Shown here: piece after piece, positions 1-38,660 of the stretch
How the letters are laid out: the number at the start of each line of letters is the position of its first letter
How positions within the stretch are numbered: the first letter of the stretch is position 1
From: Humulus lupulus
Lineage: Eukaryota > Streptophyta > Magnoliopsida > Rosales > Cannabaceae
Assembly: GCF_963169125.1 (NCBI RefSeq)
Contig: NC_084802.1
Span: forward strand, 29,827,107 to 29,891,106
Direction of reading: 5' to 3'
Length of the DNA: 64,000 nt
Notes under the pieces: model-generated
Told to the model about the DNA's origin: nothing
Databases searched by the model: none
Seen by the model: only the letters and a program-made list of their open reading frames with translations
Translations under genes and position numbers: made by a program

Positions 1-189
1 GAGCCTGCCTCCCCAATTTCGGCCTAGCTGCTTCCCTACAAGGCCCACGCCTGCCACAGCCCACCTACAGCAACCAACAAGCCCCTTTGTTCTTCTTGAG
101 CCCAACAAATGCCTCAATGTCCCTTTATGTCTAAAAATGCCATTTTTTACCCAACTTTTCTACACATTTCACCATAAAATCATCATTAC
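1..189 (-). repeat. LTR fragment of element X, split from its other half
   Basis: This stretch is the reverse complement of 14758-14960 inside the LTR of element X, with only scattered mismatches. It stops abruptly at ...ATTAC, where the LTR of T1 begins at 190. The other part of the same LTR copy lies at 17729-18815 and also ends at GTAAT. The two parts were one LTR interrupted by T1 and later separated by an inversion. About 617 bp of this LTR copy should lie just left of the window, judging by the complete copy at 13694-15577. Confidence 0.88.
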
Positions 190-1159
190 TATAATGACCC
201 AAATTTCCTAATAAGTTTTAGGACCTTGATTAGGAGGCCGGGAGGGCCATAATTGATTTATTACGCCATTAAATGATTATATGCATGATTATGTGAATTG
301 TATTATTATATGATGATAAATGCATGCATATGGGTCCACTTTTCATTATAAGGGCATTTTGGTAATTTAGCTCGTTGATGGCATATTTGTATATTTTCAT
401 GCATGTTGGTGAATTATGAATAATACCACATTATAATGTGGATTTGTTCGAGCCATTCGGCATGAGACGATCTTTGAATGCAAGTTATCAGTCTGGTCAT
501 AACGGTGTTAATTTCGGGGCTCGGGATGAGTCTCGGTGTAATTTGAGGATTAGACCATTACCGAGGATTAAAGGGTAATGGGATATGATTTATTATCATT
601 TGAGAATATTGGGAATAACGAGAATTGGAAGGTGTTAATTATGATTAACGAGATAGGCGAGAAAGGACGATTTTGCCCTTCGTGGCTGTTAAGGGTTTTA
701 AATAGGCTTGGGGCATTTTGGTCTTTTGACCTTAAGGATTTATATCAACTTGAGAAGCTGTAGAAGGCTGTAGAAAATAGAGCCTCTTTCTTCTTCAATC
801 ATTCATCATTTTCTCTCCTTCTTTCTTTGAATTTTGAAGCTCCATTTGAGGAACCAAGCTTTGATGATCTAAGGTTATGTTCTATCATTGAAGAGGGTGT
901 GATTCTGAGATTAAGGTGAGTTTCTAGCCATTAAACTTTGGTTCTTGCTCTGTTTTCTTATTGCGTTTAAGTTGAGATTTTTGGCTTGAAAGTTGAGAAG
1001 TCAATGGGGTTTTTGGAAAAGTTTGGTTAGGTTATGATGCCTAGGACTTGTGTTTATGGTTTTGGGGTTCATTTGGGAGTTTAAAAGAGGTTTGGAAGCT
1101 TGTTTTGAAGGTTGGAAATGGAGGAGTCGAAGGAGGGAAAAACCAGGGTTGAAAACCCT

Positions 1160-1250
1160 GCAGCGCCCAGCTATGGGCTATAGCGCTAGCCAAGGGCATT
1201 TTGCCCTGCTTGTAGTGCTGGGACACTAGGGGGTAGCGCTGTAGCGCTAT
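1160..1250 (+). other. AGCGCT palindrome cluster in T1 5' LTR
   Basis: Four or more copies of AGCGC or AGCGCT occur within 90 bp, including TATAGCGCTA and GTAGCGCTGTAGCGCTA. The 3' LTR has the matching cluster at 7611-7698, also with TAGCGCTATAGCGCTA. CG dinucleotides are scarce in most of this AT-rich LTR, so the cluster stands out. It begins about 970 bp into the LTR, downstream of the probable transcription start, so it would be in the RNA. Confidence 0.8.
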
Positions 1251-1953
1251 CGTACATTTCCTGATGCATGTTTTGGGAACTTTTGAGGGTTTTTGGCTCG
1301 GGGTTTCAATTCCTAAGGCTCGGGATCGAATCTACTCACCGTTTGAGTACAATTTGGGATTTCGGGATTGAGGTTTAGGTCAAGAACCTTTTATTGTTGA
1401 TTTCATTAATTGGATTCCATATTTGGTTATGAATATGTGACCGCTAAGGGATTAAAGGATTGATCATTCTCAAGGGTCGCTCTTAACGTATTTCTCGCTC
1501 GAACCAGAGGTAAGAAAAATGCACCCTATATGTGACATGCATGGTTATTAATGAGGCATGTTGAGTTTTTAAAGGTGGACATTGATTGCATATCAAATGC
1601 TTAGCAAGTCTTGCTTACTTGTGAATGGCACTGACTTATTAGTCAGAATCGGCAATGGTGTCGGTATTAACTATGAAGCTTGACTTGCTAGTCAAGTTCG
1701 ACAGTAGTACCGAGTACTGGTCGTATGGGATTGGCTTATGAGTTAAGAACGGTATTAGCGTGTTTAATGCAAGCCGAAAAGATTAGATCTAGTCGACATA
1801 AGCATTATCATCAGAAGCATGAAATGCTTGACCGACCTTAAGTTCGATGAAAACCAAAAGTGCTTGTCTAGTCTAAAGGCTAGTTATTTAGAGCCAGAGC
1901 CAAAAGGCTAAGGTGACCTACACGTCACATGGCTAGGAGGGTATGGGACCTTA

Positions 1954-2165
1954 GAGATAGACTTATTAGTCATCTGATCGAGAAAGACTTATTAGTCATC
2001 TGACCTAGGTAGACTTATTAGTCTTCTGATTGAGATAGACTTATCAGTCATCTGACCGAGATAGACTTATCAGTTATCTATTTAAATAATGACTTATTAG
2101 TCCTCTACCTCAGAGAGACTTATTAGGCATCTACCTCAGAGCAGGAGACTTATTAGTAGTCTAGT
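1954..2165 (+). repeat. Minisatellite of about 26 bp in T1 5' LTR
   Basis: About eight imperfect tandem units of the type GAGATAGACTTATTAGTCATCTGACC. Each unit has GACT-TATT-AGTC, a 4 bp inverted repeat around a 4-base loop. Related single copies upstream have longer stems (CTGACT/AGTCAG near 1630, CTTGACT/AGTCAAG near 1680). The 3' LTR has the same array at about 8378-8580 with a different set of unit variants. Confidence 0.88.
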
Positions 2166-2274
2166 TAGAGCACAGGACTTTACAAACATTTATTTGTACC
2201 TGCTTCCATGCATGAATAGGGTTATTATTGTTAGGCATGCACATTATGATTTTGTAACATGTTATTGAATTTTC

Positions 2275-2322
2275 TTGTTGGGCTTCGGCTCACGGGTGCT
2301 ATGTGGTGAAGGTAAAGGCAAA
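2275..2322 (+). promoter_or_regulatory. Conserved LTR box with splice-donor-like site
   Basis: The motif GGGCTTCGGCTCACGGGTGC is followed by ATGTGGTGAAGGTAAAGG. The copy in the 3' LTR (near 8716-8758) reads GTGCAGGTAAAGG, a good plant 5' splice donor. The same box occurs on the minus strand in the LTRs of T2 (26883-26930) and T3 (52110-52157), each time about 350-415 bp from the LTR 3' end. A leader intron ending before gag (CAGCAG at 3152-3157) is possible. The box is seen; the splicing is inferred. Confidence 0.6.
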
Positions 2323-2674
2323 AGAAAGCTAGACCATCCTTAAGTTAGAGAGCTTAGGTGACGACGTGTACATATGCAGCTGCTCGACCGCCACGGCTGA
2401 GGGTTGAAAGAGGAACTAGGGTTAAACCTTATTTTGCCGCCTAGGACGGCTGGTTGTAAATATTTTCTTGTAATTAACCTTTAAATTATATTTTTGGGAT
2501 CTCAATGTATATGGTAAATGTTTTAATGAAATGTTATAACTTAACAAAAAATTTAACCCTAAATCGCTAATCATACTTAGTTACACGATTATGGCCAAAT
2601 GACTCGATTAACGAGTTTAGCACTGTTTAAAATGCACACCATAATGGTCCCTGGAGTTTAGGGCATTACAAACT

Positions 2675-2690
2675 TGGTATCAGAGCGAGC
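2675..2690 (+). other. Primer binding site of T1 (initiator tRNA-Met)
   Basis: TGGTATCAGAGC begins four bases after the end of the 5' LTR and is complementary to the 3' end of plant initiator tRNA-Met, the usual primer for Ty3 chromoviruses and Ty1/copia elements. Confidence 0.93.
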
Positions 2691-3159
2691 CAAGGTTAAG
2701 GGTTCCTGAAGACAAGCTGGGCATGTACACTCATCATCAAAGAAAGCTTCACTCAGGGAATGGTAACTATTTTTGTAGTTATGTGCTTAACTGCTTAAAT
2801 AGAATGTAAATGATTTACCTTCACATTATATTAGGGAGCATGAGATTCTGATAGAGCCTGGCTCTTGCCTATTAAATGATTATATGATTACATGCTCTGT
2901 GAACATATATGAATGTGATTATATAATTACCTGCTCCGTGATTATATAAATGTGATATTCTCATGCTGGAGTTTGAGGCATGGTGTGAATGTTGGAAGAG
3001 CAGGGGTTATGAATTGATGAATAAATGTTATGGGCATGTGTTTAGCACTACAGTGGTTTGTGAATGTAGTGTGGTAAGACTTTTTCTGTGGGGAAAGCTC
3101 TTGATATGCTCATCATGTTTAATGGGTCAAGTTATTGACTTCAGATTCAACCAGCAGGT

Positions 3160-4197
3160 ATGTATCCAAGGCAGATAATGAGACCTGGTGGTGATTATAC
3201 AGAGGCTGGGAGTTACAACCAAGGTTTGAGTTCTTCATCTGCCCCTCAGAATTTTCAGCAAATGTTTATAGATTTGCAATTAAGATTGCAGAGGCAAGAG
3301 GAAGAGATCAAGTGTTTGAAGCAACAGCGAAACCTGTCGAGGAACACCTCTTCCTTTGATATGCCAGGAGTGGCACCAGATTTGGCTCAGCCTAGGGTTG
3401 AGAACAGATGGGAATTCCTTTGTGGAAGATTCCAGGAGTATTACCCTCCAGTCTTTGAGGGAGGCCTGGATCCATTCAGAGCTGAGCAATGGATGGGCAT
3501 GATCAATTTCATTCTTGATAGTATGGGGCTGGTAGGTCACAATAGGGTGATTTGTGCTACATACGTATTGCGGGATAATGCCCGGACATGGTGGGAAGTA
3601 GTATCCCAGACACGAGATACAGTTGTGATGGACTGGAAAGAATTTAGGCAGCTGTTTAATGAAAGATATTACTATGATGCAGCCAAGACTACTAAGATGA
3701 ATGAGTTTCTGAACCTCGTTCAGGGAAACACAACAGTAACCGATTATGTTAACAGATTTGATGGGTTGTCCAAGTTTGCTTTTGATTTGGTACCCACGAA
3801 TGTAGCTAGGAAGGAAATGTTTATCCAGGGATTGAATCTCAGAATAGCTCAGGGCATTAGAGTTTCCCCAGTGCATGAAATCTCTACCTGTGGTCAGGTG
3901 GTAGGGAAGGCTCTTGTTGTTGAGAGCACAGGAAATCAAACCGAAAAGGAAAGTTTTGGAGAGGATGGAGCTTAGATAGTGACACCTCCATTTATTGGAG
4001 CGAGCAAGAAAAAGAACTGGAGGACTTATCCAATATGCGCTCGGTGCAAGAGGCGTCATTTGAAGGGGTGTCGGCCAAAGACATGTTTCTTATGTGGAAT
4101 GGTTGGGCATATCAAGAGGGATTGTCCAAGACGAGGAGCAGATGAGAAAAAGGGGATGGACAGCTCGACTCCAGCTCGAGTGTTCATTCCAAGGTAG
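3160..4197 (+). pseudogene. T1 gag, interrupted by two TAG stops
   Basis: This codes for the capsid-nucleocapsid protein of a Ty3/gypsy chromovirus. The first 271 codons are open and hold the Retrotrans_gag fold, around residues 85-230, with landmarks such as ARTWWEVV, FRQLFNERYY and NRFDGLSKF. An in-frame TAG at 3973-3975 follows. The same frame then runs on through a zinc knuckle with CX2C-X4-H-X4-C spacing (CFLCGMVGHIKRDC) and meets a second TAG at 4195-4197. Both stops are one transition from CAG (Gln). The ATG at 3160 lies just after a possible splice acceptor, CAGCAG at 3152-3157. A 259-codon open frame on the other strand across the same DNA is a shadow. Confidence 0.9.
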
Positions 4198-4257
4198 TCA
4201 GAGTCAGAGATTGAGACTGAGACTGAGGCTGGTTCCTCAGGGGTGGCAGGTCAGCTT

Positions 4258-6596
4258 TCTAGTTTTTATTTTTGTGTTGTGCTGACTGATATTGGTGCCA
4301 GGTTGCTCTTTGCTTGTTGCATATAGAGAAGCATAGATTTGTTATGCATATTGCATGATTATGTGGTGATGAATTAGATTATGGTGAAGAGAAGACTCAT
4401 CATTTGATATGATAAGGTTGGTTATGAATGACTTCGGGATGATTCTGAATTTGGATTGGTTAGCCAAGTGTGAGGCAATGATAGCTTGTAAGGAAAGGAT
4501 AGTAACTCTTGGGTTTAAGAGTGGGAAACCTTTGTGATGGTTGGCACTGTGCATGGATTTTATATTGTGATAACAGTTGTATTTAGAGCTAGAGATCTAT
4601 TGCATGAGGGTGCATAGAACTCCTAGCGAGTGTGGTGGATACCACTTAGGTCGTGCCAGTGGGATCAGGACAGATTGGATTAGTCTGTGAGTTTCTAGAT
4701 GGATTTCCAGGGGATTTTTTAGGATTATGTTTACATAAAAAGGATAGAATGGTGATTGGATTGGTGCTAGGGATGGAATCAGGTCTAGGGCACTGTATGG
4801 AATGACTTCAGTAAAGTTGTAAGACCTAAAAGCTCAATTGTTGGATAAGGTGGTATTCTCCAAGGTGGATCTTTGATCTGGTTAGTACCAGTTGAAGATC
4901 ACGGAAAAGGATATGCAGAAGACTGCTTTTTATATCAGATAAGGGCACTGGGAGTGCTGAGTTATGTTCTGCGAATTTGGTTAATGCCAAGCTGTTTTGA
5001 TGGATTAGATGATCAGAGTATTCAAAGGTTATCTGAATTGAATTTGTGATTGTTTTGATCGACGGTATTATGGTATACTCTCAGTTGGAGATTTGCCAAG
5101 GTCAAGGAATGCCTTAGAAGGCATGAGTTTCCTTGGACGGGCAGGATATTACATATGTGCTTTGGGAAAGAGTTCTGAGTCTTCTTGCATATCAGAACCA
5201 GTTTGTAGGTTGTTATGACACCTCAGTGACATGGAAAAAGGGATTGCCTATGCATCATGTTGGTTAAAGGATCTTACCAGAACTAGAGTAGAGTTTCTGG
5301 TGGGCCAGGTGGCCAACAGTACACTTGAGTTTACTCTTTCAGAGAGAATCAAGGGAAAGACAGTTATGTGAACCACATATAAGAAAATTGAGGAGAAAGT
5401 CTTAGCTGGATTAGCTAAGGATTATACAGTGTCAGGTATGAGTTTATTGTGGTATAAGGATCGGATTTGGAATCTGATGGACACTGGGATTAAATGGGAG
5501 ATTCTGGATGAATCTCATATTATTCTATTTTTCTCTACATCCAGGCATCATGAAAATATACCAGAGTTTGAAAGCTTTATATTGGTGGCCTGGGATGGAG
5601 AGGGACATAATGGAATACGTGGCAAAGTTCTTAACCTGTTAGCAGGTCAAGACAGAGTATCAGAAACCAGTAAGACTATTGTAGCCTTTGAGTATTCCAC
5701 AGTGGAAATAAGGAAACATCGCGAGAGGTTTCGCAGTGGGACTGCCCAAGATAATGGGTCAACGTGATTTTGATTGGGTCATTATGGACCAGTATTTAAA
5801 GTGAGGCCACTTCTATCAGTAAGGACAAGTAACACAACTGATCAATATTCAAATCTTTGTGTGAGAGAGGTAGTATGCCTTCATGGAAATTCAAGGTCCA
5901 TCTTATCAGATGAAGACTCTATTGCTACTTCCAAGTTTTGGAAGGGTTGTAGAAGGTGATGAATATACAATTGGAATTTAACACAGTTTATTACTCTCAG
6001 ACTGATGGTAAATCAGAGAGAGAGTTATCCAGTCATTGGAAGGGCATCTTATGAGATGAATGAGATATTATATCTGGATAGTTCAGGGGACCATTGAGGT
6101 TATTGAAAAGGTTAGAGCTTGGATGCTCACTTATCAAAGTAAATGGAAAAGTTATATTGATTTGAGATGCAGGAACATGGAGTTTGTATCTTCCTTAAAG
6201 TAACACCATGGAAAGGGGTGAGGAGATAAGGGCAAGTTGAACCCTAAATTAATTTGACCATTTGAATCCTAGATAGGATCGGTCAGGTTGCCTTTGGATT
6301 GGCCTTATCTTTGGCACTGTCAGTTGTACACAGTGTATTTTATATTTCCAGGTTGAAGACATGGGTTAGAAGAAACTCATGTGTTAAGTTATGAGACTCT
6401 GGAGATTGAGGGTAAGTCATCCTTTGAGGAGTAGCCAGTTCAGATTTTAATAGAAAGAATAAGGTTCTGAGGAACAAAGCTATACCTTGAGTTAAGGTAT
6501 GTTACAGAAACAGTGAGGTTGAGGGAACGACCTGGGAAACTAGAATTAGTTGTGTGGAATTTATATTTCGAGCGGTTCAGATAAATTTCGAGGACG
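4258..6596 (+). pseudogene. T1 pol remnant: protease, RT, integrase, chromodomain end
   Basis: The order of pol domains can be followed but no long frame survives. A retropepsin active site (LTDIGAR, expected D-T/S-G) is near 4279, and the protease flap end (LNLDWLAK) is near 4445. An RT palm segment resembling FSKVDL-SGYHQLKI, with a stop in it, lies at 4855-4905. Integrase-like remnants follow, and near 6150-6330 a stretch resembles the integrase C-terminal GKL-P-IGPF region. The last part, about 6390-6590, resembles the tail of a chromodomain. Frameshifts and stops are frequent throughout. The assignment rests on short motifs in fixed order between the primer site and the polypurine tract. 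Confidence 0.78.
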
Positions 6597-6620
6597 AAAT
6601 TTCTGTAAGGAGGGGATAGT
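6582..6620 (+). other. CGAGGACGAAAT box and polypurine tract of T1
   Basis: AAATTTCGAGGACGAAATTT is followed by the purine run AAGGAGGGGATAG directly before the 3' LTR. The run primes plus-strand DNA synthesis. The first box is typical of the end of Tekay-type elements and recurs on the minus strand in T2 (near 28867) and T3 (near 54003). Confidence 0.9.
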
Positions 6621-9105
6621 TGTAATGACCCAAATTTCCTAATAAGGTTTAGGACCTTGATTAGGAGATCGGGAGGGGCATAATTGATTTATTATGCCAT
6701 TAAATGATTATATGCATGATTATGTGAATTATGTTATTATATGATGATAAATGCATGCATATGGGTCCACTTTTCATTATAAGGGCATTTTGGTAATTTG
6801 GCCCGTTGAGGGCATATTTGTATATTTTCATGCATGTTTGTGAATTATGAATAATACCACATTATAATGTGGATTTGTTCGAGCCATTTGGCATAAGACA
6901 ATCTTTGAATGCAAGTTATCGGTCTGGTCATAACGGTGTTAATTTCGAGGCTCGGGGTGAGTCTCAGGGTAATTTGAGGATTAGAACATTACCGGGGATT
7001 AAAGGGTAATGGGATATGATTTATTAGCATTTGAGAATATTGGGAATAACGGGAATTGGAAGGTGTTAATTATGATTAACAAGATAGGCGGGAAAGGATG
7101 AGTTTGCCCTTCGTGGCTGTTAAGGGTTTTAAATAGGCTTAGGGGCATTTTGGTCTTTTGACCTTAAGGATTTATATCAACTTGAGAAGTTGTAGAAGGC
7201 TGTAGAAAATAGAGCCTCTTTCTTCTTCAACCGTTCATCATTTTCTCTCCTTCTTTCTTTGAATTTTGAAGCTCCATTTGAGGAACCAAGCTAGGGAACC
7301 AAGCTTTGATGATCTAAGGTTATGTTCTATCATTGAAGAGGGTGTGATTATGAGATTAAGGTGAGTTTCTATCCATTTAAACTTTGGTTCTTGCTCTGTT
7401 TTCTTATTGAGTTTCAGTTGAGATTTTTGGCTTGAAAGTTGAGAATTCAATGGGGATTTTGGCAATGTTTGGTTAGGTTATGATGCCTAGGACTTGTGTT
7501 AATTTTTTTGGGGTTCATTTGGGAGTTTAAAAGAGGTTTGGAAGCTTGTTTTGAAGGTTGGAAATGAAGGAGTCGAAGGAGGGAAAAACCAGGGTTGAAA
7601 ACCCTGGTTGTAGCGCTACAGCACTAGCCAGGGGCATTCTGTCTTGCTTGTAGCGCTGGGCACTAAGGGGGTAGCGCTATAGCGCTACCCTGCTTTTCCT
7701 AATGCATGTTTTGGGCACGACTCGGGGTTTCAATTCCTAAGGCTCGGGATCGAATCTACTCACCGTTTGAGTACGATTCGGGATTCCGGGAGTGAGGTTT
7801 AGGTCAAGAACCTTTTATTGTTGATTTCATTAATTGGATTCCATATTTTGTTATGACTAAGTGACCGCTAAGGGGTTAAAGGATTGATCGTTCTCAAGGG
7901 TCGTTCTTAACATATTTCTCGCTTGAGCTAGAGGTGAGAAAACTGCACCCCATATGTGACATGCATGGTTATTGATGAGGCATGTTGAGTTTTTAAAGGT
8001 GGACATTGATTGCATATCAAATGCTTAGAAAATCTTGCTTACTTGTGAATGGCACTGACTTATTAGTCAGAATCGGCAATGGTGTAGGTATTAACTGTGA
8101 AGCTGTGACTTACTAGTCAAGTCAGTAGTAGTACCGAGCACTGGTCGTATGGTATTGGCTTATGAGTCAAGAACGGTATTAGCGTGTTTAACGCAAGCTG
8201 AAAAGATTAGATCTAATCGACATAAGCATTATCATCAGAAGCATGAAATGCTTGACCGACCTTTAGTTTGATGAAAACCAAAAGCACTTGCCTAGTCTAA
8301 AGGCTAGTTATTTAGAGCCAGAGCCAAAAGGCTAAGGTAACCTACACGTCACATGGCTAGGAGGGTATGGGACCTCAGAGATAGACTTATCAGTCATTTG
8401 ATCGAGATAGACTTATTAGTCATCTGACCTAGATAGACTTATTAGTCATCTGGCCTAGATAAACTTATGAGTCAGAGATAGACTTATCAGTCATCTGACC
8501 GAGATAGACTTATTAGTTATCTATTTAAAGAATGACTTCTTAGTCATCTACCTCAGAGCAGGAAACTTATTAATCGTCTACTCAGAGCGCAGGACTTTAC
8601 AAATATTTATTTGTACCTGCTTCCATGCATGAATTGGGTTATTATTGCTAGGCATGCACATTATGATTTAGTAACATGTTATTACTATTCATGAGCATAT
8701 TGAGTTTTCTTGCTGGGCTTCGGGTCACGAGTGCTATGTGGTGCAGGTAAAGGCAAAAGAAAGCTAGACCATCCTTGAGTTGGAGAGCTTAGGTGACGAC
8801 ATGTACATATGCGGCTGCTCGACTGCCACAGCCAAGGGTTGAAAGAGGAACTAGGGTTAAACCCTATTTTGCCGCTTAGGTCGACTAGTTGTAAATATTT
8901 TATTGTAATTAACTTTTAAATTATATTTTTGGGATCACAATATATATGGTAAACGTTTTAATGAAACGTTATATCCTAACAAAAATTTTAACCTTAAACC
9001 GCTAATGATACTTAGTTACACGATTATGGTCAAATGACTCAATTAGTGAGTTTAGCACTATTTAAAATGCATAATGTAACGGTCTCTGGAGTTTAGGACG
9101 TTACA
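6621..9105 (+). repeat. 3' LTR of T1
   Basis: Runs from TGTAATGACCC to GGACGTTACA, about 2485 bp, colinear with the 5' LTR. It has its own palindrome cluster (7611-7698), minisatellite (about 8378-8580) and conserved box (near 8716-8758). Its last seven bases, CGTTACA, are the inverse of the first seven of the Cassandra LTR at 18816. It is followed by TATCC, which does not match the ATTAC before the 5' LTR. Confidence 0.93.
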
Positions 9106-11090
9106 TATCCTATATTATTAATTTTTTTATCAAAAAAAATATATATGTATTTATTAAAAATATAATATGCCTATTATTTAAAAAATAAGGATATATTTGT
9201 CAAAAGACAATTCATTCATTTGTCTTCCAAGCTTCCATTCCAAGGTTTTATCAAACAAATATTCCTCTTTCTTTTTCTTACCATTCGTGTTGCCATTCTT
9301 GTTCCTATTACTTCAATTTTATTCAAATTAACCAAACGCCACCTTAGATAAGCGAAAACTCTTAATAAGGTAATGTGGTCAATGAAAGATCAACATTTAA
9401 TATATGCTAATCCATTAGATTTTCCAATTTCATGATTCTAGTCCTATAACAACAATAATCACTCCCAAATATGTCACCAGATATTCTCAACATCACATAG
9501 TAAATAATTGGGCATCAACCCTATTATACAGAAATCTCAAGCACAACCATCGTTTCATAAAACTAGCTCGAGTGGAACCTATCAGTTGGAGGATAACGCA
9601 TATTAAAAAATATGTAAAGGCACATAAAATCATCTCAGCTTCTAGTTAGAAATCAGCTCGACATAAGACAAAGACTGAACTGATTTACAAAAACCACACC
9701 AGTAAGAAACAATCACTACACGAGTAATAAATAACCTAAACAAAGTACAGTTCACGAAATGATAGCTCACAAGCCCATGTCAAGCTCAGACAAACACCGC
9801 CTGAATCCATGCAATAAATATCAAATCAGTATATGAAATGAGCACTAGTTTTTTTAGGTCAATGATTCTGTCGCTCGGATAGAATCAATCACACCAATTA
9901 AGGGATTGAATATCTCAAATTTTTAGGGAGCATTCAAAGCCAATTACCTTCATAAATAGAGGTAATTCCCCAATGTGAGGGTGACAAAAAAAGAAAGAGA
10001 AACTTATGATTCTCTGATAGGGAAAACCATTTGTAATCTGAAAAAATCCATTAGAGAATGAATAAAAGCTACAACGGAGGCAGGTCACATTCTTGGTTCA
10101 ACCACTATATACCTTGAGTATCTAAGTGAGTGCAACAAAAGAATATATCTCATACAAAAATATCTGAAAGTATTGCTATTTTAGTTTTATAAAAATAATT
10201 AACTTAATTAATTAATCTTTATTTTATTTAAAATAAAAATGATCAATTATAATCTATTTAATTATTTAATTTGAATCATATCTAAAAAGAATAATTAAAT
10301 AAACAAATAAATTTGAAATTCAAAATTCAAAATCCCAAGGATAGAAAATATCATTGTGTGGCGCCACTCACTATACAATACAGTGAGTGGTGTGAGCATT
10401 TCCTTAATTTTCTCATGTATTTGTTTAATCAATATTTAAGACAATATATTTATCCCAAAATAAATATCAATTTTAAATAAATAAATATCTTATTATAAAT
10501 AAGATAATAATTAATCCATCTCTTTAATTCAAACATGATTAACATATAGTTTTTCAAAATAAAAATAATATAGTTAAATAATTAATTAATTGTCCATAAC
10601 TATCACATAATTATTTCCTAACACTGAAAAATTAATTCATTTGCAATTAAGTCATTCTTTCTACAAATCTTTCTTTTGACATCCTTACCCTTGACAGTGT
10701 AAGACAAAGGTGATCTAGGGACCATTGACCTATAATTCGAATCTCCAATAAACTAAATTATTAATTAAACTATTTAATCTAATAATATTATTTATTAATT
10801 ACATGATTATTCCACTATAAATATGGAATTTCACTCTAAGTATTTATATAATTATATTTACAGAGTTTTCTCTTATAGTCCATTGATATAATAAATGTAG
10901 TTTTGTCCTTCATTTATTGGTTCGTTAGTTAGAGCTAGTCAAGATTACTGTTTTACCCTTCTAATTACCTTTTGTTCCTTAAGTACCATTAATTCACTAG
11001 CGAATAATTAATCTATAATCAAATTATAGATTTTAGCTCAATAACTATTTAGTTCCAGAATTAACCCTTATGTTATCCCTTAAATATCAA
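9106..11090. other. AT-rich stretch without a gene
   Basis: No coding signal on either strand. It contains a strong small hairpin at 10364-10390 (CCACTCACT, 9-base loop, AGTGAGTGG). The part from about 10620 to 11090 reads like repeat-derived sequence, but I cannot assign it to a family. Its left edge is an inversion breakpoint and its right edge is the start of element Y. Confidence 0.7.
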
Positions 11091-11930
11091 TGTAATGACG
11101 TGGCAATTTGAGGTGACAGGTGGCAATGCATTTATACCAGGTGGCGCATTGATGATCAAAAATGTGCCGACCAGAGGGAGTGTAAAGGATTAGGAAATGA
11201 CCTACTAGGCAGAGCTTATATTGCATCACTGGTTGGAAAATCACTGACCAGTGATGGCAAGTATGGTTGCATCATTGGTCGAAAAATCATTGACCAGTGA
11301 TTGTAAGTATAGTTGCCTCTGGTCGGGAAAAAGTCGACCAGAGACTTCAAAAGAGCATCTCATAGAACAGGCCGACCAGAGACTTCAGAATCTCAGGAGC
11401 TTACTGACCAGTAACCTCTTTAGCAGAATCTCAGCAATGTCTTCAACAAAAAATGTCCGTAACTGTCATGGGATCTTTCGCATATATCCCGAAATAATAG
11501 CCCATTTTGTTGTATTTGGAAATTGATTAATATTTTGAATAATTTTATTAATTAAAGGTAGTTGAAACAGCTGATGACTGATTCAAGACTCATGGCCTTT
11601 TGTATAAGATCCATGAGCCTATAAATAGAGGACTCATGACTTCATTTAGGGGACTTTTAGATTTTTAGACTTTGGAGATGTAATTTAATTCCCTAGAGAC
11701 ATTCTGTCAAAATATTCCCTGTTTACACTTGAGAAACTCAGTTGGCCAAGGTTAATCTGATCTTAAGTGTAGGTTGGCATATATAAAAACATCAAGTGGA
11801 TTAGGCTATTACCAATTCTTTGGGGCTGAACCACTATAAAACTCTTGTGTCATTTATTTTATATTCAATGTTATTTTAGTTTATGTCATTTTTTGCATCT
11901 ACTCGTCATTGGACAAAATGGTGGTCAACA
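11091..11930 (+). repeat. 5' LTR of Y
   Basis: Starts TGTAATGACG and ends GGTCAACA. A good TATA box, CTATAAATAG at 11619-11628, lies between the U3 part and the leader. The phrase GGGGCTGAACCACTATAAA near 11820 is shared with the Tat-B LTR at about 46129, which supports a Tat-type LTR. The exact ends are inferred from the TG...CA rule and the shared ending GTCAACA. Confidence 0.75.
11226..11343 (+). repeat. Three consecutive hairpins in the U3 of Y
   Basis: Three inverted repeats in a row: TCACTGGT with ACCAGTGA (11226-11254), TCATTGGTC with a near-matching GACCAGTGA (11272-11300), and CTCTGGTCG with CGACCAGAG (11317-11343, perfect 9 bp stem). All are built on TGGTC/GACCA. They lie about 280-390 bp upstream of the TATA box, where enhancer or factor-binding sites would sit. 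Confidence 0.8.
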
Positions 11931-11994
11931 TTTTTTATGCTTTCGTTGACAGCCTGAATAGAAAAAGCACACTAGAATTCCCATCCTACTCGTT

Positions 11995-13693
11995 ATGGCA
12001 CCCAGGAAGCCCAATGCATCGACTGCAAAAGAAACCATCAGACCAGAAGATCTTGATACACCTGAAAATCTTGAAAATGAGCCTAGAGTCACTCTTGAGG
12101 AGATAACACCAGAAATGGAACAACTTTAGGAGGCAATGGGAGTTTTCCAAGAGTAGATGATGCAGTTCAATGCCCGACAGGAGTCGTTTGCTGAAGAAAT
12201 GACTAGGTAGAAGGTCGAGTTCAAGCAGCAAAAACGAGACATGGATGCAAGGAATGAGGAAATCAGACTAAGGAAAGAAAAGGCTGACCGACGACATCAC
12301 AAGGAGGCGCTCGCTCTAGAAGCAGCTACCCAGTTGGCCCAGGCAAATGCCCAAGCTGTGGCGCAAAATGCTGCCCAGGGAGCTCGAAATGACTACACTG
12401 GTCGAAAGCCACCTGCTGGAAGGACAAACTCTTCAGGACCTGATCGAAGTCAAAGTAATCAGTCTGGTCAAATGAATGATGACCTCCACTCTAGAACTAC
12501 GTCCACGCAGAGAGAAAATTCTAGAACCCCTTTGAGAAGTCACCAGTTAGAAACTCCCCGGTCAGGAAGTCACCGATAGGGTAGTAATCAAGCCCCTCCC
12601 GGAAACAAACAAACCAAGGCTCCTAAGTCTCCTCGAGATAAAAAAACTCCTGGGTACAAAGACGATCATGGTCGAGATGAGGCTGATAGTCATCAAACTG
12701 ACCAGTCAAAGTATCGAAAGGGCAATTGCCAAAAGGAAGGAGAAGACTGCCCGATTCGTCCTGAAGAGCCACCTCGACATCCCAACCAGTAGCCTAGTGG
12801 AAAAGAGCAGGCCTCACGTAATAAATCGTCTGATAAGGAAAGATAAAAAGCACAATATTCGACCGGATAGGAGGACATGCTACCTGGAAGGATTTACGAG
12901 ATGTCATCAGCAATAAGAATAAGACCGCCCAAGTCGAAGGGCAATTTCTTGCCCGCCTTGACGATCAAGTAGAAATACTTGATGGAAGTGCACCAGTTGG
13001 AAATGTCGACCAGGAGGTCAAAATACTGGAAAATCATCAGTAGCACCGGTCATTCAAGCTAGCTCGATGCACTAGCAACTGCAGTACAGGGTTTGTCTAA
13101 ACGATCTACCGAGTTGGATGAAGTAGATCATAGGAGTGGTAGTCCCTTTTGTGCTCGGATCAGAGCAGCCAAGCCACCTGCAAAATATAAAGCTCCAGTG
13201 CTACCGATGTATTCAAGGAAAGAGGAACCGCTCAGGCATGTCGGAAATTTTTAGGATCAAATGGAACTTCTCGGAGTGAGCGGTGATTATCGATGCAAAG
13301 TTTTCCTGACCACATTGTCGGATACTGCCCAGGAATGGTATTGGAAATTCAAACTGGATTCCATTATCTCATGGAACATGTCCAGGAAGGAATTTTGTCG
13401 ACAATTCAGTGCTGCCCAGACCCCTCTAGTCTATGCAAATCACCTGGCAGATATCAAGCAAGGAAAGGTCATCTCATGGCAGTACGAGCTGGAGTATTGT
13501 CAGGGAGTCCCCTTTGGGATGACATGCAAAGAAAACCCGTGAGGATGATAACTGAGTTCAACACTCGGGCTCAAAGGTTCATCAATGTAGAAGAGGCGAG
13601 GTCAGCACTAAAGCTAACTTCTCAGCCCATAATAACTACAATGACAAACGTTAACTCGGCCTCGACCTCGACTATGCCTTCCACATCGTGGCC
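11995..13693 (+). pseudogene. Y gag (Tat-like), many stops, truncated
   Basis: The frame from the ATG at 11995 can be read through in-frame TAG codons at 12127, 12154, 12208, 12577 and 12790. It first encodes a Glu/Lys/Arg/Ala-rich helical segment (12241-12400), then a hydrophilic linker. After frameshifts, a Retrotrans_gag capsid domain appears at about 13255-13600, with landmarks VFLTTLSDTAQEWYWK and FCRQFSA and then HLADIKQGK. The tail moves to another frame near 13480-13520 (RMITEFNTRAQRFINVEEA). The gene ends where X is inserted. The TAG stops are each one transition from CAG. Tat/Retand-type gag is the best fit. Confidence 0.82.
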
Positions 13694-15577
13694 TGATGGA
13701 CCCAAAATGGGTATGTTTTAAATATTTATATCACAAGCGCACGATTCGTTCATATAGAATAGTGATCGTGTAAGAAAGGATGTCGAACCCAAATGAGTTG
13801 TCTAAAATCAAAAAGAAAACTATTTTAAACCAAAATTAATAAATTCCAACATAGTTCCAAAGATTGATGAGATTTTTGTATTAAGAAAATAAAATAAAAA
13901 GATAATAATAAAGATATTAAAGACAATATATATAACTAAATTAATAATTGTAAACAAGATGGTAGAAGAAAGATTATTAAGATAATAGAATCCACAAAAC
14001 ATAAGTTCAATAATATTTATAAGCACATTGATTCCCAAGTTTTAGTAATAGTAGAAATTAATCAAACCATCACTTATTCAAATTAGATATTCTATTTAAG
14101 CACAAGTTATTTTAGAAATATAGGAATTATCTTCACTTTTTGAGATATAATTTCAAAGTATTTAGTGTGAATCAATCTAAAGAAACAACAAATAAATCAA
14201 TGAATATTATTTATAAGGAAAAACATAATATTTTTGTTCTAAGCATTTGATGTGCACAATTTAATGGCACACCTTAATCAAATAATATTATGATTTTGCA
14301 CTAATGAAGAACAAAGTGTAAATATGTGCTAACAATAAAAAATACATGATATTTAAGATGAAAGAAGATATTTGAAGACGAAAAATCCATAAACTTTGTT
14401 GCACAAATGGGAAATCAACATACAAAATAAATACTATCTAGACACATATTGTTTCATCATCACCTTAATAATCTCAAAAAGATTAGAAACTCATAACTAG
14501 AATAGAAATTACAAACATAAATAGGAAAATTTGGAGGAGGAACCCCCAAATTTTCCTCTAAAAACTCATAGAAAAATGACCAAAATGAAGAAAAAGATGA
14601 AGAGAATGGAGTGGTCTTGAAAGTGTAGCAATTGTGTAGTGTAACCTCTCCTCAAAAATGGTCTTCGAATCCCTTACTTATAGCCAAAAAAGAGTATTAA
14701 AATAATCAACTTAAATTAATTAAATAAAGTAAATATGACATGTAGATGTAAATTCTAGGGGTGTAATGATGATTTTGTGGTGAAATATGTAGAAAAGTTG
14801 GGTAAAAAAATGACATTTTTAGACATAAGGGGACAAGGGGACATTGAGGCATTTGTTGGGCTCAAGAAGAACAAAGGGGCTTGTTGGTTGCTGGAGGTGG
14901 GCTGTGGCAGGCGTGGGCTTGGCAGGGAAGCAGCTAGGCCGAAATGGGGGAGGCAGGCTGGGGCTTCAGCGTTGGGCCTGGCTAGGAAGGTTGGGCAGGT
15001 GTGGGTCGGGTCGACGGGTCCAGGCGGGTCAGGGGATGTGGGTCAGGCGCCTGGGGCAGCTGGAGGCGCGGGCCGGGCTGGGGTGGGCTTGGCAGAGGGC
15101 AGGCGAGCCCAGGCCGTGGGCTTCATGTCCTTGAGCTTGGAGGCTTTTCAGAAATGCCTTTTTTTCTTTCTTTGAAAATGCCATTTTTTCTTCATTTTTC
15201 TTGTTTTTCAAGAGCCAAAAAATACAACATATTTCCTATAAAATAAAACAAATTAAATTAAAACCAAATATTTTCAATAATAAAATATACAACATAAGTT
15301 CCATGAAAATACTAATTAAAACTTAATTTAATTTGACATTTAAGCTCAATAAAATCATATTTTTAACTTTTAATTCAATGACGCTAGTTTCAAATAATTA
15401 AACTATCAAATATTACAATAAAATATCTATAAAAACATATAAAAATCTAAAAAATTACAATAAGACTAATAAATTCAAAATTACTTAAAAGCTTAATAAA
15501 TTACTTAAAAACTTAAAGACTAAGCAACAATTAGCATAAAAAATGTGGTAAAATAACTCTATTTTGTAGAGTTATCA
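13694..15577 (-). repeat. 3' LTR of X (complete copy, 1884 bp)
   Basis: On the minus strand it starts TGATAACTC (from 15577) and ends GGGTCCATCA (at 13694). It contains a GC-rich, G-skewed island at about 14880-15125 in otherwise AT-rich sequence, which gives false open frames on both strands. The second LTR copy matches it from 17729 up to the GTAAT at 18811-18815, and 1-189 continues that match. Confidence 0.9.
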
Positions 15578-15596
15578 TACCCTCAAACTTAAAGTT
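15578..15596 (-). other. Polypurine tract of X
   Basis: On the minus strand CTTTAAGTTTGAGGGTA leads directly into the LTR start TGATAACTC. The AAGTTTGAGGG run before the 3' LTR is typical of this kind of plant Ty3 element. Confidence 0.75.
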
Positions 15597-16770
15597 TTGC
15601 TAGTCCTCAAGCAAAAGAAAATTAAAACACAAATTTTTTTTATGGTGATATCTTAAGTATTTCCTCAAAAATTACACAATGATAATAGTTCTCAAAAAAA
15701 TTTTATGAATATAGATTAAGCTTATCAAATAATCAATCTTGATTTCTAGGAAGATTTAAGAAATATTATTTTGCATATAAACTTATAATAAATAGAAGTG
15801 TTCTATTATGAAAAATATAAAAAAAACTTAGAAAACTTGACCCAATAATTAAAAGCTTAAGAACAATTCATATTTTTAAGAGAACCACAATTAAACATGG
15901 TTAAGGTTTTTACTTGGACATGAAAAATATCACAATTTTTTTTAATATTTTATAACAAATGAAAAACACACATAAACAAAAAGAAAATCACTTTAAACAA
16001 AAAGAAAACACACATACACACACACTACACCCCCAAACTTAAATGAAACATTGTCCTCAATGAGTAATAAAATAGAAAAAGTTAAGAACTACTCACTTGG
16101 ATGTATGCTTCCTTGATTTGGCTCATTTGTTTTCTTCTTTTTTTTTTTTCTTTTTGGGCAAGAAGTTTCCTTCAAGCTTTTAAAAATACATGAAACAAAA
16201 GCACACAACAAAAGTGAAATATAAAATGAAACATGAAAAGTATGGATTGCCTACCACAAAGCGCTTTAGTTTATAGTCTTTAGCTCGACTATATATATAT
16301 ATATATTTCTTCTAACCTACACCTAATCGATGGTGTAGAATTTCATTTGTAGGGTGAGTTATGAGTTTGATGCAAATTCCATAAATAATAATTGATAACA
16401 TTACACCTACACAAAAATTAGAAATATGCAATTTTGATGGAATATCAATGAAATGAAAAAATTGCACATCTATGTCACACTCTTTTTTATTTTGAGAAAA
16501 TATACAAATTTGTTCAATTATGAGTTCATGAGATATAATTATATTTTTTTCATTTTCCTCATGAGCCTCGAAAATTATTCCATCCAACTCTTTCGTTTTA
16601 TTAAGAGGTTGGATGCATATTACAAGTTCTTCAACAACTTCATTCTCTTTTTCACTTTCAATTTGACTATTTGGATTGGGAATGAGTTGGTTGGGATAAA
16701 CTTGTTTTTCTGACTCTATAACAGTTGCAAGTTGTCCGACTATTGTCTCAATTTTTGAGATTGACTGAAA
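15597..16770. other. Interior of X without coding signal
   Basis: AT-rich sequence with poly-A/T runs and an (AT)n tract near 16288-16306. Open frames at 16312-16587 (minus) and 16453-16713 (plus) are short, low-complexity and mutually overlapping. I see no domain in either. Confidence 0.6.
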
Positions 16771-17073
16771 CTAGGCTTGTAAGATTTGGTAGGTTGATTG
16801 CATGAACTGTTGTAGGGTATCCTCTAAAGATGGGCTCGTTTCTTGTTGAATGGGATATGATAGGTTGAATTGGGCGTGACTTTGATTTAGCATGTTGAAT
16901 TGATGCCCTTGATTCATTGGAGAATGGGTATGACTCCATGAAAAATTTGGATTATAGGCCGAGGTAAAAGGGATATCAAAGGATTCATGCATATCATTAG
17001 TTTCTTCATAATTTAAATTTGAGTGTTCATAATAGTTGTACTCAGAATTCCAGCTATAATTAAAATGATCCAT
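16771..17073 (-). CDS. Short gag-like frame in X
   Basis: A 100-residue open frame starts at the ATG at 17073 and is intact to its stop. It is rich in Asn, Tyr, Ser, His and Gln. Its end (SLEDTLQQFMQSTYQILQA) resembles the conserved SLE-x-x-L-x-x-F-MQST segment found in gag proteins of Athila/Tat-type elements. It has no capsid or zinc-knuckle domain. It may be the surviving end of a deleted gag, or a packaging remnant. Whether it is translated is unknown. Confidence 0.5.
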   Translation of the reverse strand: MDHFNYSWNSEYNYYEHSNLNYEETNDMHESFDIPFTSAYNPNFSWSHTHSPMNQGHQFNMLNQSHAQFNLSYPIQQETSPSLEDTLQQFMQSTYQILQA

Positions 17074-17189
17074 TTTAAGAGACTTTTTTAAAAAAAAAAT
17101 AATTATAACATAAATTAAGAAGAGTATTAAACACAATAATTAAGGAAAAAATGTAAAATTAAGATAACATAAAAAATATTAAGAAATGA

Positions 17190-17500
17190 AAACAAGAGTT
17201 AGGAGGCACAAGTGTCATCAACTAATAACAATATAACAAAATAGAATAAAAAGTTAGGAGGCACAAATGCCATCAACTATCACAAAATAAGAGAGAATAA
17301 CACAAGAGCTATGAGGCACAAGTACCGTCAACTATAAAAATACAACAACAAAAATAAAAAGATTACAACAAAGGTAAGGAGTCACAAGTGCCATCAACTA
17401 ACAAAAATAAAAAAAAAATTACAACAAGAGCTACAACAAGATTTAGGAGGCACAAGTGTCATCAACTATAAAGAAAAAAAAGATAGATATGAGGCACAAA
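17190..17500 (-). repeat. Minisatellite in the interior of X
   Basis: The phrase TAGGAGGCACAAGTGCCATC recurs with changes about six times at spacings of roughly 50-70 bp (near 17198, 17256, 17310, 17378, 17445 and 17490), separated by A-rich filler. The conserved part is GAGGCACAARTGYCATCAACTA. It lies between the primer binding site and the gag-like frame. Confidence 0.75.
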
Positions 17501-17703
17501 TGTCGTTAACTAAAAAAATGCAATAAATATAAATATATAAATAAATTTTTTTTATGGGTGGTAGAACCGTCCCAAATTTTATTTTTATCTTTTTTTAATT
17601 TTTATATATATTTTTGTAAATATATTTTTTTTAAATGAAAAAATTAAATAACTAGTAGAAGAATTCACTAATCTTGAGAAAAATTTCGTTTCTTTTCTTG
17701 CAA

Positions 17704-17726
17704 CTCTCCGACAATGGCGCCAAAAA
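17704..17726 (-). other. Primer binding site of X
   Basis: On the minus strand TTTGGCGCCATTGTCGGAGA follows the LTR end TCCATCA by three to four bases. It resembles the TGGCGCC-type primer sites of Athila/Ogre-like elements, usually assigned to tRNA-Asp. The tRNA assignment is from knowledge of those families. Confidence 0.75.
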
Positions 17727-17728
17727 CT

Positions 17729-18815
17729 TGATGGACCCAAAATGGGTATGTTTTAAATATTTATATCGCAAGCGCACGAATCATTCATATAGAATAGTGA
17801 TCGTGTAAGCAAGGATGTCAAACCCAAAGGAGTTGTCTAAAATAAAAAAGAAAACTATTTTAAACCAAAATTAATAAATTCTAACCTAGCTCCAAAGATT
17901 GATGAGATTTTTGTATCAAGAAAATAAAATAAAAGGTAATAATAAAGATATTAAAGACAATATATATAACTAAATTAATAATTTTAAACAAGATGGTAGA
18001 AGAAAGATTATTAAGATAATAGAATCCACAAAACATAAGTTCAATATTATTTGTAAGCACATTGTTTCCCAAGTTTTAGTAATAGTAGAAATTTATCAAA
18101 CCATCACTTATTCAAATTAGATATTCTATTTAAGCACAAGTTATTTTAGAAATATAGGATTTATCTTCACTTTTTGAAATATAATTTCAAAGTATTTAGT
18201 GTGAATCAATCTAAAGAAACAACAAATAAATCAATGAATATTATTTATAAGGCAAAACATAATATTTGTGTTCTAAGCATTTGGTGTGCACAATTTAATG
18301 ACACACTTTAATAAAAGAATATTATGTTTTTGCACTAATGAAGAACAAAGTATAAATATGTGCTAACAATAAAAAATACATTATATTTAAGATGAAAGAA
18401 GATATTTGAAGAAGAAAAATCCATAAACTTTGTTGCACAAATGGGAAATCAACATACAAAATAAATACTATCTAGTTACATAATATTTCATCATCACCTT
18501 AATAATCTTAATAAGATTATAAACTTATAACTAGAATAGAAATTACAAATCAAAAATTACAAACATAGATAGGAAAATTTGGAGGAGGAACCCCCAAATT
18601 TTCCTCTAAAAACTCATAGAAAAATGACCAAAAAGAAGAAAAAGATGAAGAGAGTGGAGTGGTCTTGAAAGTGTAGCAATTGTGTAGTGTAACCTCTCCT
18701 CAAAAATGGTCTTCAAATCCCCTATTTATAGCCAAAAAAGAGTATTAAAATAATCAATTTAAATTAATTAAATAAAGTAAATATGGCATGTAGAGGTAAA
18801 TTCTAGGGGTGTAAT
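17729..18815 (-). repeat. 5' LTR of X, 3' portion (split copy)
   Basis: Colinear with 13694-14764. A TATA box (minus strand CTATAAATAG, near 18718-18728) precedes the leader. The copy stops at GTAAT (18811-18815), where the Cassandra LTR begins. The rest of this LTR continues at 189 down to 1 on the other side of the inversion. Confidence 0.9.
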
Positions 18816-19188
18816 TGTAACGCCCCACGTCACTATGGTTGCTTCCTGGAATAACGACTGGCCCTACAAACCAACACAAGTCTTTCCAGCGTGCTTTGTC
18901 CTCACTTGCAAGCTTCCTGGGAAAACTTCCCAGGAGGTCACCCATCATAAGATTGCTCTAGGTCAAACACGCTTAACTTTGGAGTTTTCAAGTGATGGGC
19001 TACCAAAAATAAGATGCATCTTGTTGGCATAGGTGGTATTCATCAATCAATTTAAGCCCTCTTAAATTGTGTAGTCACATACCTACACAGTCTTAGAACC
19101 ATCACCTTTAACCTTCCCCAGGCAGTGTGGGATTGCATAGCTTTACCCAGTCTTTCCCCCTACGGATCACAAGATACTGACTGTCACA
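18816..19188 (-). mobile_element. Cassandra-type solo LTR carrying 5S-like sequence
   Basis: A 373 bp unit from TGTAACGCCCC to GACTGTCACA. On the minus strand it begins TGTGACAGTC and contains a clear 5S rRNA-derived part. Cassandra elements are known plant miniature LTR retrotransposons with a 5S sequence in each LTR. Only one LTR is present, so this is a solo LTR. The flanks do not match each other (GTAAT and GGATA); both match T1 flanks in reverse complement. A second copy of equal length lies at 49440-49812. Confidence 0.88.
18925..18995 (-). ncRNA. 5S rRNA-derived segment inside Cassandra LTR
   Basis: On the minus strand AAAGTTAAGCGTGT (the 5S box A region) is followed about 20 bp later by GATGGGTGACCTCCTGGG, a near-exact match to the 5S box C region. 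Box A and box C form the RNA polymerase III internal promoter of 5S genes. The intermediate segment has diverged from 5S. It is part of a transposon, not a ribosomal gene. Confidence 0.85.
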
Positions 19189-19955
19189 GGATAGATACTA
19201 TTATTTTTCATATATTATAAAAATACAATAATTATAGCTTTTTTATGAAGAGAAACAATAATTATAATAATACTATTGATTTTTTTCCCATTAATGGTTT
19301 TCGAAAGCCATTGTAGGATGATCGACAACCGAAATTCCATATCAAAATTAGTTAATTATTTAACACTATATATATAAAGCTAAATGATAATTAATCAAAA
19401 TTAGTGAGGGAAAAAATGACAAATAAAAATAAGTTTGAAAAAGAATGCATTTTGCACCTAATTTTTAGAAGAATAATAAATCCATTTTGTTGGTGAAAAG
19501 GAATTCTCTTAAGGATTCCTGAGCGAAAAGCAAAACCAAACATAATAATAAAGTAAATCCATTCTATTCTAATTGATTCATACCAACCAAATGTTACCTA
19601 AGTTTATATGCAATGTAGGATATGGTAAGAATACAATGGACCAGTGAGCAACAGAAGTTCATGATTGTGGACTGTACTGACTGAGTGTTTTATAATTAAA
19701 CAAGTGATAACTCACTCTGGTATATCTTTAGCGAACAATATTGTTAATGAGTATTAAATTATGAAAAAATTTGTAAATCGAGTTTGAAACATGTTTTTAT
19801 GAGGATTTTGCATTTAAAGAAAAGTTTTTAAATATGAGAATTTTCCACAAATAATTTTACTATTTATTTTGAAAATTTAAAGTAAAAGAAAGTTAATAAC
19901 TCTTTCTATCATATAAATTTTAATGTTTTTGTAATAAATGGGGATTGATAAATGG
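19189..19955. other. AT-rich stretch without a gene
   Basis: No coding frame or known repeat recognised. The first five bases, GGATA, are the flank that pairs with TATCC after T1. Confidence 0.6.
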
Positions 19956-20249
19956 TTTGTCTATCATATCATGTTGTTTTTCAAACTTTATTTACAAAAA
20001 TCTCCTAGAAAATTTTATTTACAAATATACCTTGTCACATCATCAAAATATACCTGAATTCACAATAATACTACTTGAAACTAGAAAAGGAGAATTTGGC
20101 CAACTTAACCTGAAAAAAGAGGCACTAATCTCACTGCTCGAATTATTATGTTTTTCTGGGTTTTCTAAAGTAACATTTTGGTTGCTTAAGATTCTGATAA
20201 AATAATGACTGGTAACTTTTTATAAAAAGCTTTATTTTTAAATCATATT

Positions 20250-20507
20250 ATTTCATATACGTTTTGGTTACCTCCAAAACCTATTTGTAGAAAATTAGTT
20301 ATTTTAAGATGCTGATTAGTTACCTTAAAAAACATAGCTTCATTTTTAGGTTATCTTATGGTATCTTATTAGTTAAGAGACTTTTACATTATCCAAAACT
20401 TATTTGTAAAAAATTAGTTATTTTAAGATACTGATTAGTTACCTTTAAAAACATGGCTTTATTTTTAGGTTATATTATGATGTACTATTATTTAAGAGAC
20501 CAAAATA
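20250..20507 (+). repeat. Two tandem units of about 125 bp in the left end of the MULE-like element
   Basis: The block containing AAAATTAGTTATTTTAAGAT, GATTAGTTACC and TTTATTTTTAGGTTAT occurs twice in a row (about 20260-20380 and 20390-20500). Diverged inverted copies occur on the right side at about 22300-22640. Subterminal repeats of this kind are common in MULE-type and other DNA transposons. Confidence 0.7.
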
Positions 20508-32919: not shown

Positions 32920-33152
32920 TGTAACACCCCAAAATCCTAACCCCGAGACCTCATTAGGGTATTAGTCATTTCAAATCGTTTTAAAGCTTGAAAACCAAAT
33001 GATAGACTATATAGTGCATAAAACTTTGTTAGAAACATTCTTATTAAAACCATGCAGCAATTGGATATTCGTAATTTAAATTGAAACATGTATCTTAAAT
33101 GCAAGTAACCAAACAAAACTATTTTTGGTCTCCATTCATAACAAAACACATT
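32920..33152 (-). repeat. 5' LTR of T2, truncated to 233 bp
   Basis: Matches 26515-26747 closely (TGTAACACCCCAAAATCC against TGTAATGCTCCAAAATCC). It ends at AAAACACATT, where the Tat-A LTR begins. Confidence 0.9.
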
Positions 33153-38055: not shown

Positions 38056-38260
38056 TTTTTTCTCTTTGAGCTAAGTAAGCATGCGTGCCATAGCTTATTG
38101 GGGTATATACTAACACGCTCGAGCCCTCGAGCATAGTTGTAATTATTTTCCCATTTAAAAACTATGCAACTTGCATTACTTTTAGACTTCTTTGATTCTT
38201 TTAGTTCGCCATAATATCGCATTCACAAGAATCAGAACCTTAGGTCCTATTTTGTTTGGT

Positions 38261-38660
38261 TTGGTTCTATGAATTCAACGTAACTTAATTGCCACGAAAA
38301 TAAGCACTCAAATCACTTTGAAAACTTGGTTCTATAAATTCAACGTAACACGACTGCCACGAGAACAAGAACTCAAACTGTTTTAAATATTTATTTGGTT
38401 TTATAAATTCAACGTAGCATGACTGCCACGAGAACAAGAACTCAAATCATTTTAAATATTTTATTTGGTTCTATAAATTCAATGTAACATGATTGTCACG
38501 AGTACAAGAACTCAAACTGTTTTAAATATTTTATTTGGTTCTATAAATTCAACATAACACGATTGCCACGAGAACAAGAACTCAAACCATTTTAAACATT
38601 TGGTTCTATAAATTCAATGTAGCCTGACTACCATGAGAACAAGAACTCAAATCATTTTAT
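38261..38660. repeat. Minisatellite of about 70 bp, six units
   Basis: Units begin TTGGTTCTATAAATTCAA and contain TGCCACGAGAACAAGAACTC, repeated about six times with length differences of a few bases. It lies just beyond the antisense gene. Tandem repeats in the pol-to-LTR spacer are common in Tat elements. Confidence 0.88.

What the first reader, a model, noticed from the sequence alone, without database searches (positions are those of the whole stretch)
9106..18815. A 9.7 kb inversion proved by swapped target-site duplications
T1 is flanked by ATTAC (185-189) and TATCC (9106-9110). The Cassandra LTR is flanked by GTAAT (18811-18815) and GGATA (19189-19193). Neither element has matching flanks, but each flank of one is the reverse complement of a flank of the other. 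Inverting 9106-18815 on paper gives T1 the pair ATTAC/ATTAC and Cassandra the pair GGATA/GGATA. It also joins 1-189 to 18815-17729 as one continuous LTR of X, matching the intact copy at 14758. Three independent repairs from one operation make chance very unlikely. The inversion happened after both insertions.
Basis: seen in the sequence. Interest (0 to 1): 0.88.

Follow-up and report, generated by a model that had tools for sequence, protein, structure and literature searches.

The report
Small inversion between unrelated retrotransposon ends
In this plant-like DNA a 9.7-kilobase stretch appears to have been flipped exactly between the ends of two different jumping elements, as their swapped insertion footprints show; it is a clean fossil of a known kind of rearrangement with an unusual pair of partners.

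Summary
T1 (190-9105) is flanked by ATTAC/TATCC, a Cassandra solo LTR (18816-19188) by GTAAT/GGATA. The two pieces of X's 5' LTR, aligned separately to X's 3' LTR, overlap by exactly GTAAT at 14763-14767. Chance is remote: 2 of 2,000,000 random flank quadruples. An inversion is the best reading.

Corrections: (1) The footprints do not say what turned: inverting 190-19188, with Cassandra in X and T1 outside, repairs both pairs equally. I prefer 9106-18815 because the facing ends share TGTAACG (7 bp; 9 of 10), against at most TGT in the other model; this is moderate evidence, as such ends are common here. (2) "After both insertions" is not shown: two co-integrating elements with mixed end pairing would leave the same footprint in one step. 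(3) The X and T1 repairs share one junction.

T1 inside X looks older than X (6.67% against 4.46% substitutions, P=0.008), but not on transversions or non-CG/CHG sites. Exchanged footprints are known for same-family elements (Galileo); here the families differ and the breaks sit at LTR ends. Reads, relatives and the own genome were out of reach.

The parts
1..189 (-). Part of the 5' LTR of element X, outer side of the T1 insertion; cut off by the start of the window
   Evidence: rc(2-189) aligns to 14763-14959, 180 identities, 8 mismatches, 9 gap positions
185..189 (+). ATTAC, target-site duplication copy left of T1 (site A, in X)
190..9105 (+). Element T1: LTR retrotransposon, LTRs 190-2670 and 6621-9105, primer-binding site from about 2674, gag ORF 3160-3975
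9099..9105 (+). CGTTACA, 3' terminus of T1; inverted 7-bp match to the left end of the Cassandra LTR; breakpoint 1 lies here or at 9105/9106
9106..9110 (+). TATCC, exchanged duplication copy of site B
9106..18815 (.). Segment read as inverted in the preferred model
13694..15577 (-). 3' LTR of element X (1884 bp), holding an unoccupied copy of T1's target, GTAAT at 14763-14767
15578..17728 (-). Internal region of X (2151 bp), with a primer-binding-site-like stretch beside 17728 and an unassigned ORF at 16771-17136
   Evidence: the ORF has no Pfam match
17729..18815 (-). Part of the 5' LTR of X, inner side of the insertion
18811..18815 (+). GTAAT, exchanged duplication copy of site A
18816..19188 (-). 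Cassandra solo LTR (373 bp) with degenerate 5S-type boxes at 18936-18978, minus strand
18816..18822 (+). TGTAACG, left terminus of the Cassandra LTR (its 3' end if the boxes give its sense); breakpoint 2 lies here or at 18815/18816
19189..19193 (+). GGATA, duplication copy of site B right of Cassandra

Best explanation
Relative to its ancestral order, 9106-18815 is inverted. Shown: T1 and a Cassandra LTR carry each other's 5-bp duplication, and the X 5' LTR is split exactly at one of them. Inferred: T1 had inserted into X at ATTAC and Cassandra at GGATA about 9.7 kb away; later the chromosome broke or switched template at the two facing, oppositely oriented LTR termini, which share TGTAACG, and the ends were joined crosswise with no base lost or gained. 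The exchange lies inside those 7 bp or at their outer edge. The elements stayed outside the turned segment, so both remained complete while their outer and inner flanks were parted. It is a passive scar; no function is implied.
For: Exchanged flanks; X halves overlapping by exactly the T1 duplication, with an unoccupied copy of the site in X's other LTR; random quadruples 2 of 2,000,000 and 1 of 3721 offsets; rc of T1's 3' end TGTAACGTCC against Cassandra's left end TGTAACGCCC, 7 bp in a row and 9 of 10; the facing ends of the rival geometry share TGT at most. T1's LTR divergence is compatible with its lying inside X once CG/CHG sites or transitions are set aside (4.24% against 4.09%, P=0.86; transversions 50 of 2430 against 26 of 1256, P=1.0). 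Microhomology-mediated break repair is proposed for many rearrangements of maize centromere 10 (PMC4806543, passages).
Against: Two breaks exactly at LTR ends with no base lost is more precise than ordinary end joining usually is (general knowledge). Shared TGTAAYG ends are common here: T1 and Cassandra share them with element E3 too (5-10 bp among their U5-type ends), so 7 bp may be no more than these families usually share. On all substitutions T1 looks older than the X that holds it (6.67% against 4.46%, P=0.008), which by itself favours the rival geometry. Site B has no unoccupied homologue in the window; it rests on 5 bp.
Confidence: 0.55

Rival explanations
1. Mixed-end integration. T1 and Cassandra cDNAs were present together; one integration complex joined T1's left end and Cassandra's left end into X at ATTAC, another joined their right ends at GGATA, and the DNA between was inverted in the same step. 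The 'swapped' duplications are then the ordinary 5-bp duplications of two mixed complexes.
For: It needs no secondary break and explains why both breakpoints are exactly at LTR ends (1 of 3721 offsets). If the 5S boxes give Cassandra's sense, each mixed complex holds one U3 and one U5 end, as a normal one does. T1's and Cassandra's U5 ends are alike, as expected if one integrase can use both; T1's primer-binding site contains the TGGTATCAGAGC given for Cassandra in PMC7215508. Host inversions after one-ended integration are known in retroviruses (PMC5041404, passages).
Against: I found no report of it for LTR retrotransposons in searches (listings, plus passages of eight papers). The retroviral cases have one aberrant, often truncated end, unlike the clean ends here. 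Simultaneity is untested: the solo Cassandra LTR cannot be dated, and its divergence from the second copy (25 of 318 non-CG/CHG sites) only suggests an older common source.
Confidence: 0.2
2. The other geometry: Cassandra, not T1, was inside X (ATTAC/ATTAC), T1 stood at GGATA, and 190-19188 (elements included) was inverted, with breaks at T1's left and Cassandra's right end.
For: It repairs both duplications as well as the preferred model, and lets T1 be older than X, as all substitutions suggest.
Against: The facing ends share TGT at most (T1's 3' LTR start TGTAATGACC against TGTGACAGTC; the present 5' LTR start is TATAATGACC); the age excess disappears on transversions and non-CG/CHG sites.
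Confidence: 0.1
3. Assembly error: a contig bounded by the repeats T1 and Cassandra was placed in the wrong orientation.
For: Misassemblies tend to end at repeat edges (general knowledge), exactly where these breakpoints are.
Against: No N anywhere in the 64,000 bases. A flipped contig should leave overlaps or a gap, yet both joins are seamless to the base. Between 7000-9300 and 17500-20500 there are only 7 shared inverted 12-mers, none at either junction, so no long inverted repeat exists to mislead an assembler.
Confidence: 0.1
4. Chance: unrelated flanks and unrelated pieces of X.
For: Site B alone rests on a 5-bp match, which random pairs reach at about 0.0013.
Against: 2 of 2,000,000 random quadruples and the X halves meeting at exactly that 5-bp site.
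Confidence: 0.01

Closest known systems
Inversions by ectopic recombination between transposon copies (Galileo, Drosophila buzzatii 2z3; PMC2775673, passages and section 10 part 1)
   Same: Two elements at the two breakpoints with exchanged target-site duplications and no flank lost.
   Different: Galileo copies are homologous and chimeric, with the crossover inside them. T1 and Cassandra show no BLAST match to each other, and the exchange is at their very ends.
Hybrid-element or alternative transposition (described in PMC2775673; Ac/Ds in PMC8225341 and PMC3470690, seen as search listings with abstract starts only)
   Same: Two ends from different elements act together and an inversion results.
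   Different: Those are cut-and-paste DNA transposons; these are LTR retroelements that do not excise.
LTR elements or solo LTRs with unlike duplications after inter-element recombination (maize: PMC2686159 and PMC4806543, passages)
   Same: Mismatched flanks record a rearrangement.
   Different: There, recombination is between like LTRs; here two families and a reciprocal pair within 19 kb.
Aberrant retroviral integration with host inversions (PMC5041404, passages)
   Same: Host DNA inverted at an LTR end.
   Different: One end is aberrant and often truncated; here all four ends are intact, each next to a 5-bp duplication copy.

Membership tests
Inversion by ectopic recombination between homologous elements | Two homologous copies in opposite orientation at the breakpoints | tested here: not met
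   No T1-Cassandra match in the window self-BLAST at E<=1e-10; only the 7-bp termini are shared
Inversion by ectopic recombination between homologous elements | Exchanged target-site duplications | tested here: met
Inversion by ectopic recombination between homologous elements | Chimeric element copies | tested here: inconclusive
   T1's LTR mismatches are not clearly clustered (155 of 2000 shuffles reach the observed maximum); no parental copies at hand
Cassandra | 5S-type box A and box C, 18 nt apart, in the LTR | tested here: met
   1 mismatch at 18936-18978; perfect in the copy at 49560-49602
Cassandra | PBS TGGTATCAGAGC inside the 5' LTR | not testable with these tools
   Only one LTR remains; no second Cassandra LTR lies nearby
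Mixed-end integration (hypothesis) | Both elements inserted at the same time | not testable with these tools
   A solo LTR cannot be dated; no relatives at hand
Ty3/gypsy (T1) | Ty3-type gag, and pol with the integrase after the reverse transcriptase | tested here: inconclusive
   Retrotrans_gag E=1.8e-17, Ty3_capsid E=4.7e-06 but below its cut-off; no open frame beyond 278 aa in 2671-6620; pol domains not searched

The most novel reading that the evidence does not exclude
One-step inversion by mixed-end integration: two different non-autonomous-looking LTR elements served by one integrase swapped ends between two integration complexes 9.7 kb apart, so insertion and inversion were one event. 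If general, pairs of different LTR families with similar termini and reciprocal duplications should be findable in large plant genomes.
Probability: 0.2. Interest if true: 0.7.

Novelty: new variant of a known kind. Interest (0 to 1): 0.36.

Why it matters
Reciprocal duplications let a small inversion in old, repeat-rich DNA be read from one genome without a relative. If unrelated LTR families can exchange flanks at their termini, screens that look only for same-family pairs miss a class of rearrangement, and elements discarded for 'mismatched TSDs' hold usable information. It would also make it testable whether integrase complexes can pair ends of different elements.

Tried and rejected
A T1-family chimera as cause (recombination between two T1 copies): rejected because the partner site holds Cassandra, which does not match T1, and T1's LTR mismatches are not clearly clustered (155 of 2000 shuffles). 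The age paradox as proof of the other geometry: weakened, because the excess is in transitions and CG/CHG sites. Dating Cassandra from its second copy: not decisive (25 of 318 non-CG/CHG sites differ; CpG decay 5 against 4). Rfam and tRNA scans of the whole window gave nothing at the gathering threshold or from ARAGORN. The protein search with T1's gag gave 5 proteins; the only one with a source name is Humulus lupulus (62% identity over 34% of the query), a hint of a plant and no identification of the species.

Full report
What is there. T1 spans 190-9105, with LTRs 190-2670 and 6621-9105 (90.1% identity with gaps), the primer-binding site TTGGTATCAGAGCGAGCC just after the 5' LTR and a gag ORF at 3160-3975 (Retrotrans_gag, E=1.8e-17). 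A 373-bp LTR lies at 18816-19188; with the box A + 18 nt + box C pattern of PMC7215508 (passages) it matches on the minus strand with one mismatch, so it is a Cassandra solo LTR. Rfam's 5S model finds the same place below its gathering score. A second Cassandra LTR at 49440-49812 has perfect boxes. Element X lies on the minus strand: 3' LTR 13694-15577, internal part 15578-17728, and a split 5' LTR.

The footprints. T1 has ATTAC/TATCC and Cassandra GTAAT/GGATA; by eye each pair agrees at 2 of 5 positions. Crosswise, each is a perfect reverse complement. For comparison, element E3 (51746-60674) has CTATT/CTATT, and the second Cassandra LTR TTAAC/TTTAC, 4 of 5. The piece 17729-18815 ends, and the piece rc(2-189) begins, on the same five bases of X's 3' LTR, GTAAT at 14763-14767. 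That LTR is thus an unoccupied copy of the insertion site. Random quadruples fit both swaps in 2 of 2,000,000 draws, and only the zero offset of 3721 fits.

Which part turned. Two inversions restore both duplications: 9106-18815 (T1 in X, Cassandra outside) and 190-19188 (Cassandra in X, T1 outside). This favours the first, moderately: E3, T1 and Cassandra all have TGTAAYG-type U5 ends, and of 7 CGTTACA sites in the window 6 are LTR termini and the seventh lies 24 bases inside T1's 3' end (positions compared by eye; 3.41 sites expected, 8 of the shuffles reach 7).

Age. T1 differs between its LTRs at 162 of 2430 sites, X at 56 of 1256 (P=0.008), although in the preferred model T1 sits inside X. 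Transversions are equal (50 of 2430 and 26 of 1256, P=1.0), and so are sites outside CG/CHG contexts (91 of 2148 and 50 of 1223, P=0.86). Faster decay of methylated cytosines is the likely cause (inference). T1 then entered X soon after X inserted.

Mechanism. No long inverted homology exists at the breakpoints: 7 inverted 12-mers are shared between 7000-9300 and 17500-20500, none at a junction. So classical ectopic recombination between like elements, as for Galileo (PMC2775673), does not apply. Most likely the 7-bp inverted termini mediated a reciprocal exchange by break repair or template switching (0.55). The boldest reading is that T1 and Cassandra integrated together with mixed end pairing (0.2). 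It gives exact LTR-end breakpoints without any secondary break and, if the 5S boxes give Cassandra's sense, keeps one U3 and one U5 end in each complex. An assembly error keeps 0.1: repeat edges are where such errors fall, but there is no N in the window and both joins are seamless.

Literature. Nine answered searches and passages of eight papers (of PMC2775673 also part 1 of section 10) showed me no inversion with exchanged duplications between different LTR families. Search 23, the most direct one, returned 0 papers. The library holds open-licence papers only, and most of the listed papers were seen only as listings, so this is weak evidence of absence.

Limits. The own genome did not complete (eleven identical requests), no plant collection is offered, and the window cuts X's 5' LTR. 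Site B rests on five bases.

Noticed in passing
51746-60674: Element E3: a young-looking LTR pair (99.9% over 2247 columns) with matching CTATT duplications; on the minus strand by its primer-binding-site-like stretch.
   Followed up: partly
49440-49812: Second Cassandra solo LTR, perfect 5S-type boxes, duplications TTAAC/TTTAC (4 of 5).
   Followed up: partly
190-9105 and 13694-18815: T1, nested in X in the preferred model, looks older than X on all substitutions but not on transversions or non-CG/CHG sites: a caution for LTR dating.
   Followed up: yes
13293-13721: A 142-aa frame runs from flanking DNA into X's LTR at 13694; it looks like a retroelement remnant that X entered, but has no Pfam match.
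   Followed up: no
26515-26747 and 32920-33153: A 91% direct repeat whose copies begin near TGTAATGCTCC and TGTAACACCCC; perhaps LTR starts of another element, borders unresolved.
   Followed up: no
38260-38659: A tandem array, copies about 83% alike.
   Followed up: no
9075-9105: TGTAACG and CGTTACA form a short inverted repeat in the last 31 bases of T1's 3' LTR; the 5' LTR has CATAATG and CATTACA there.
   Followed up: no
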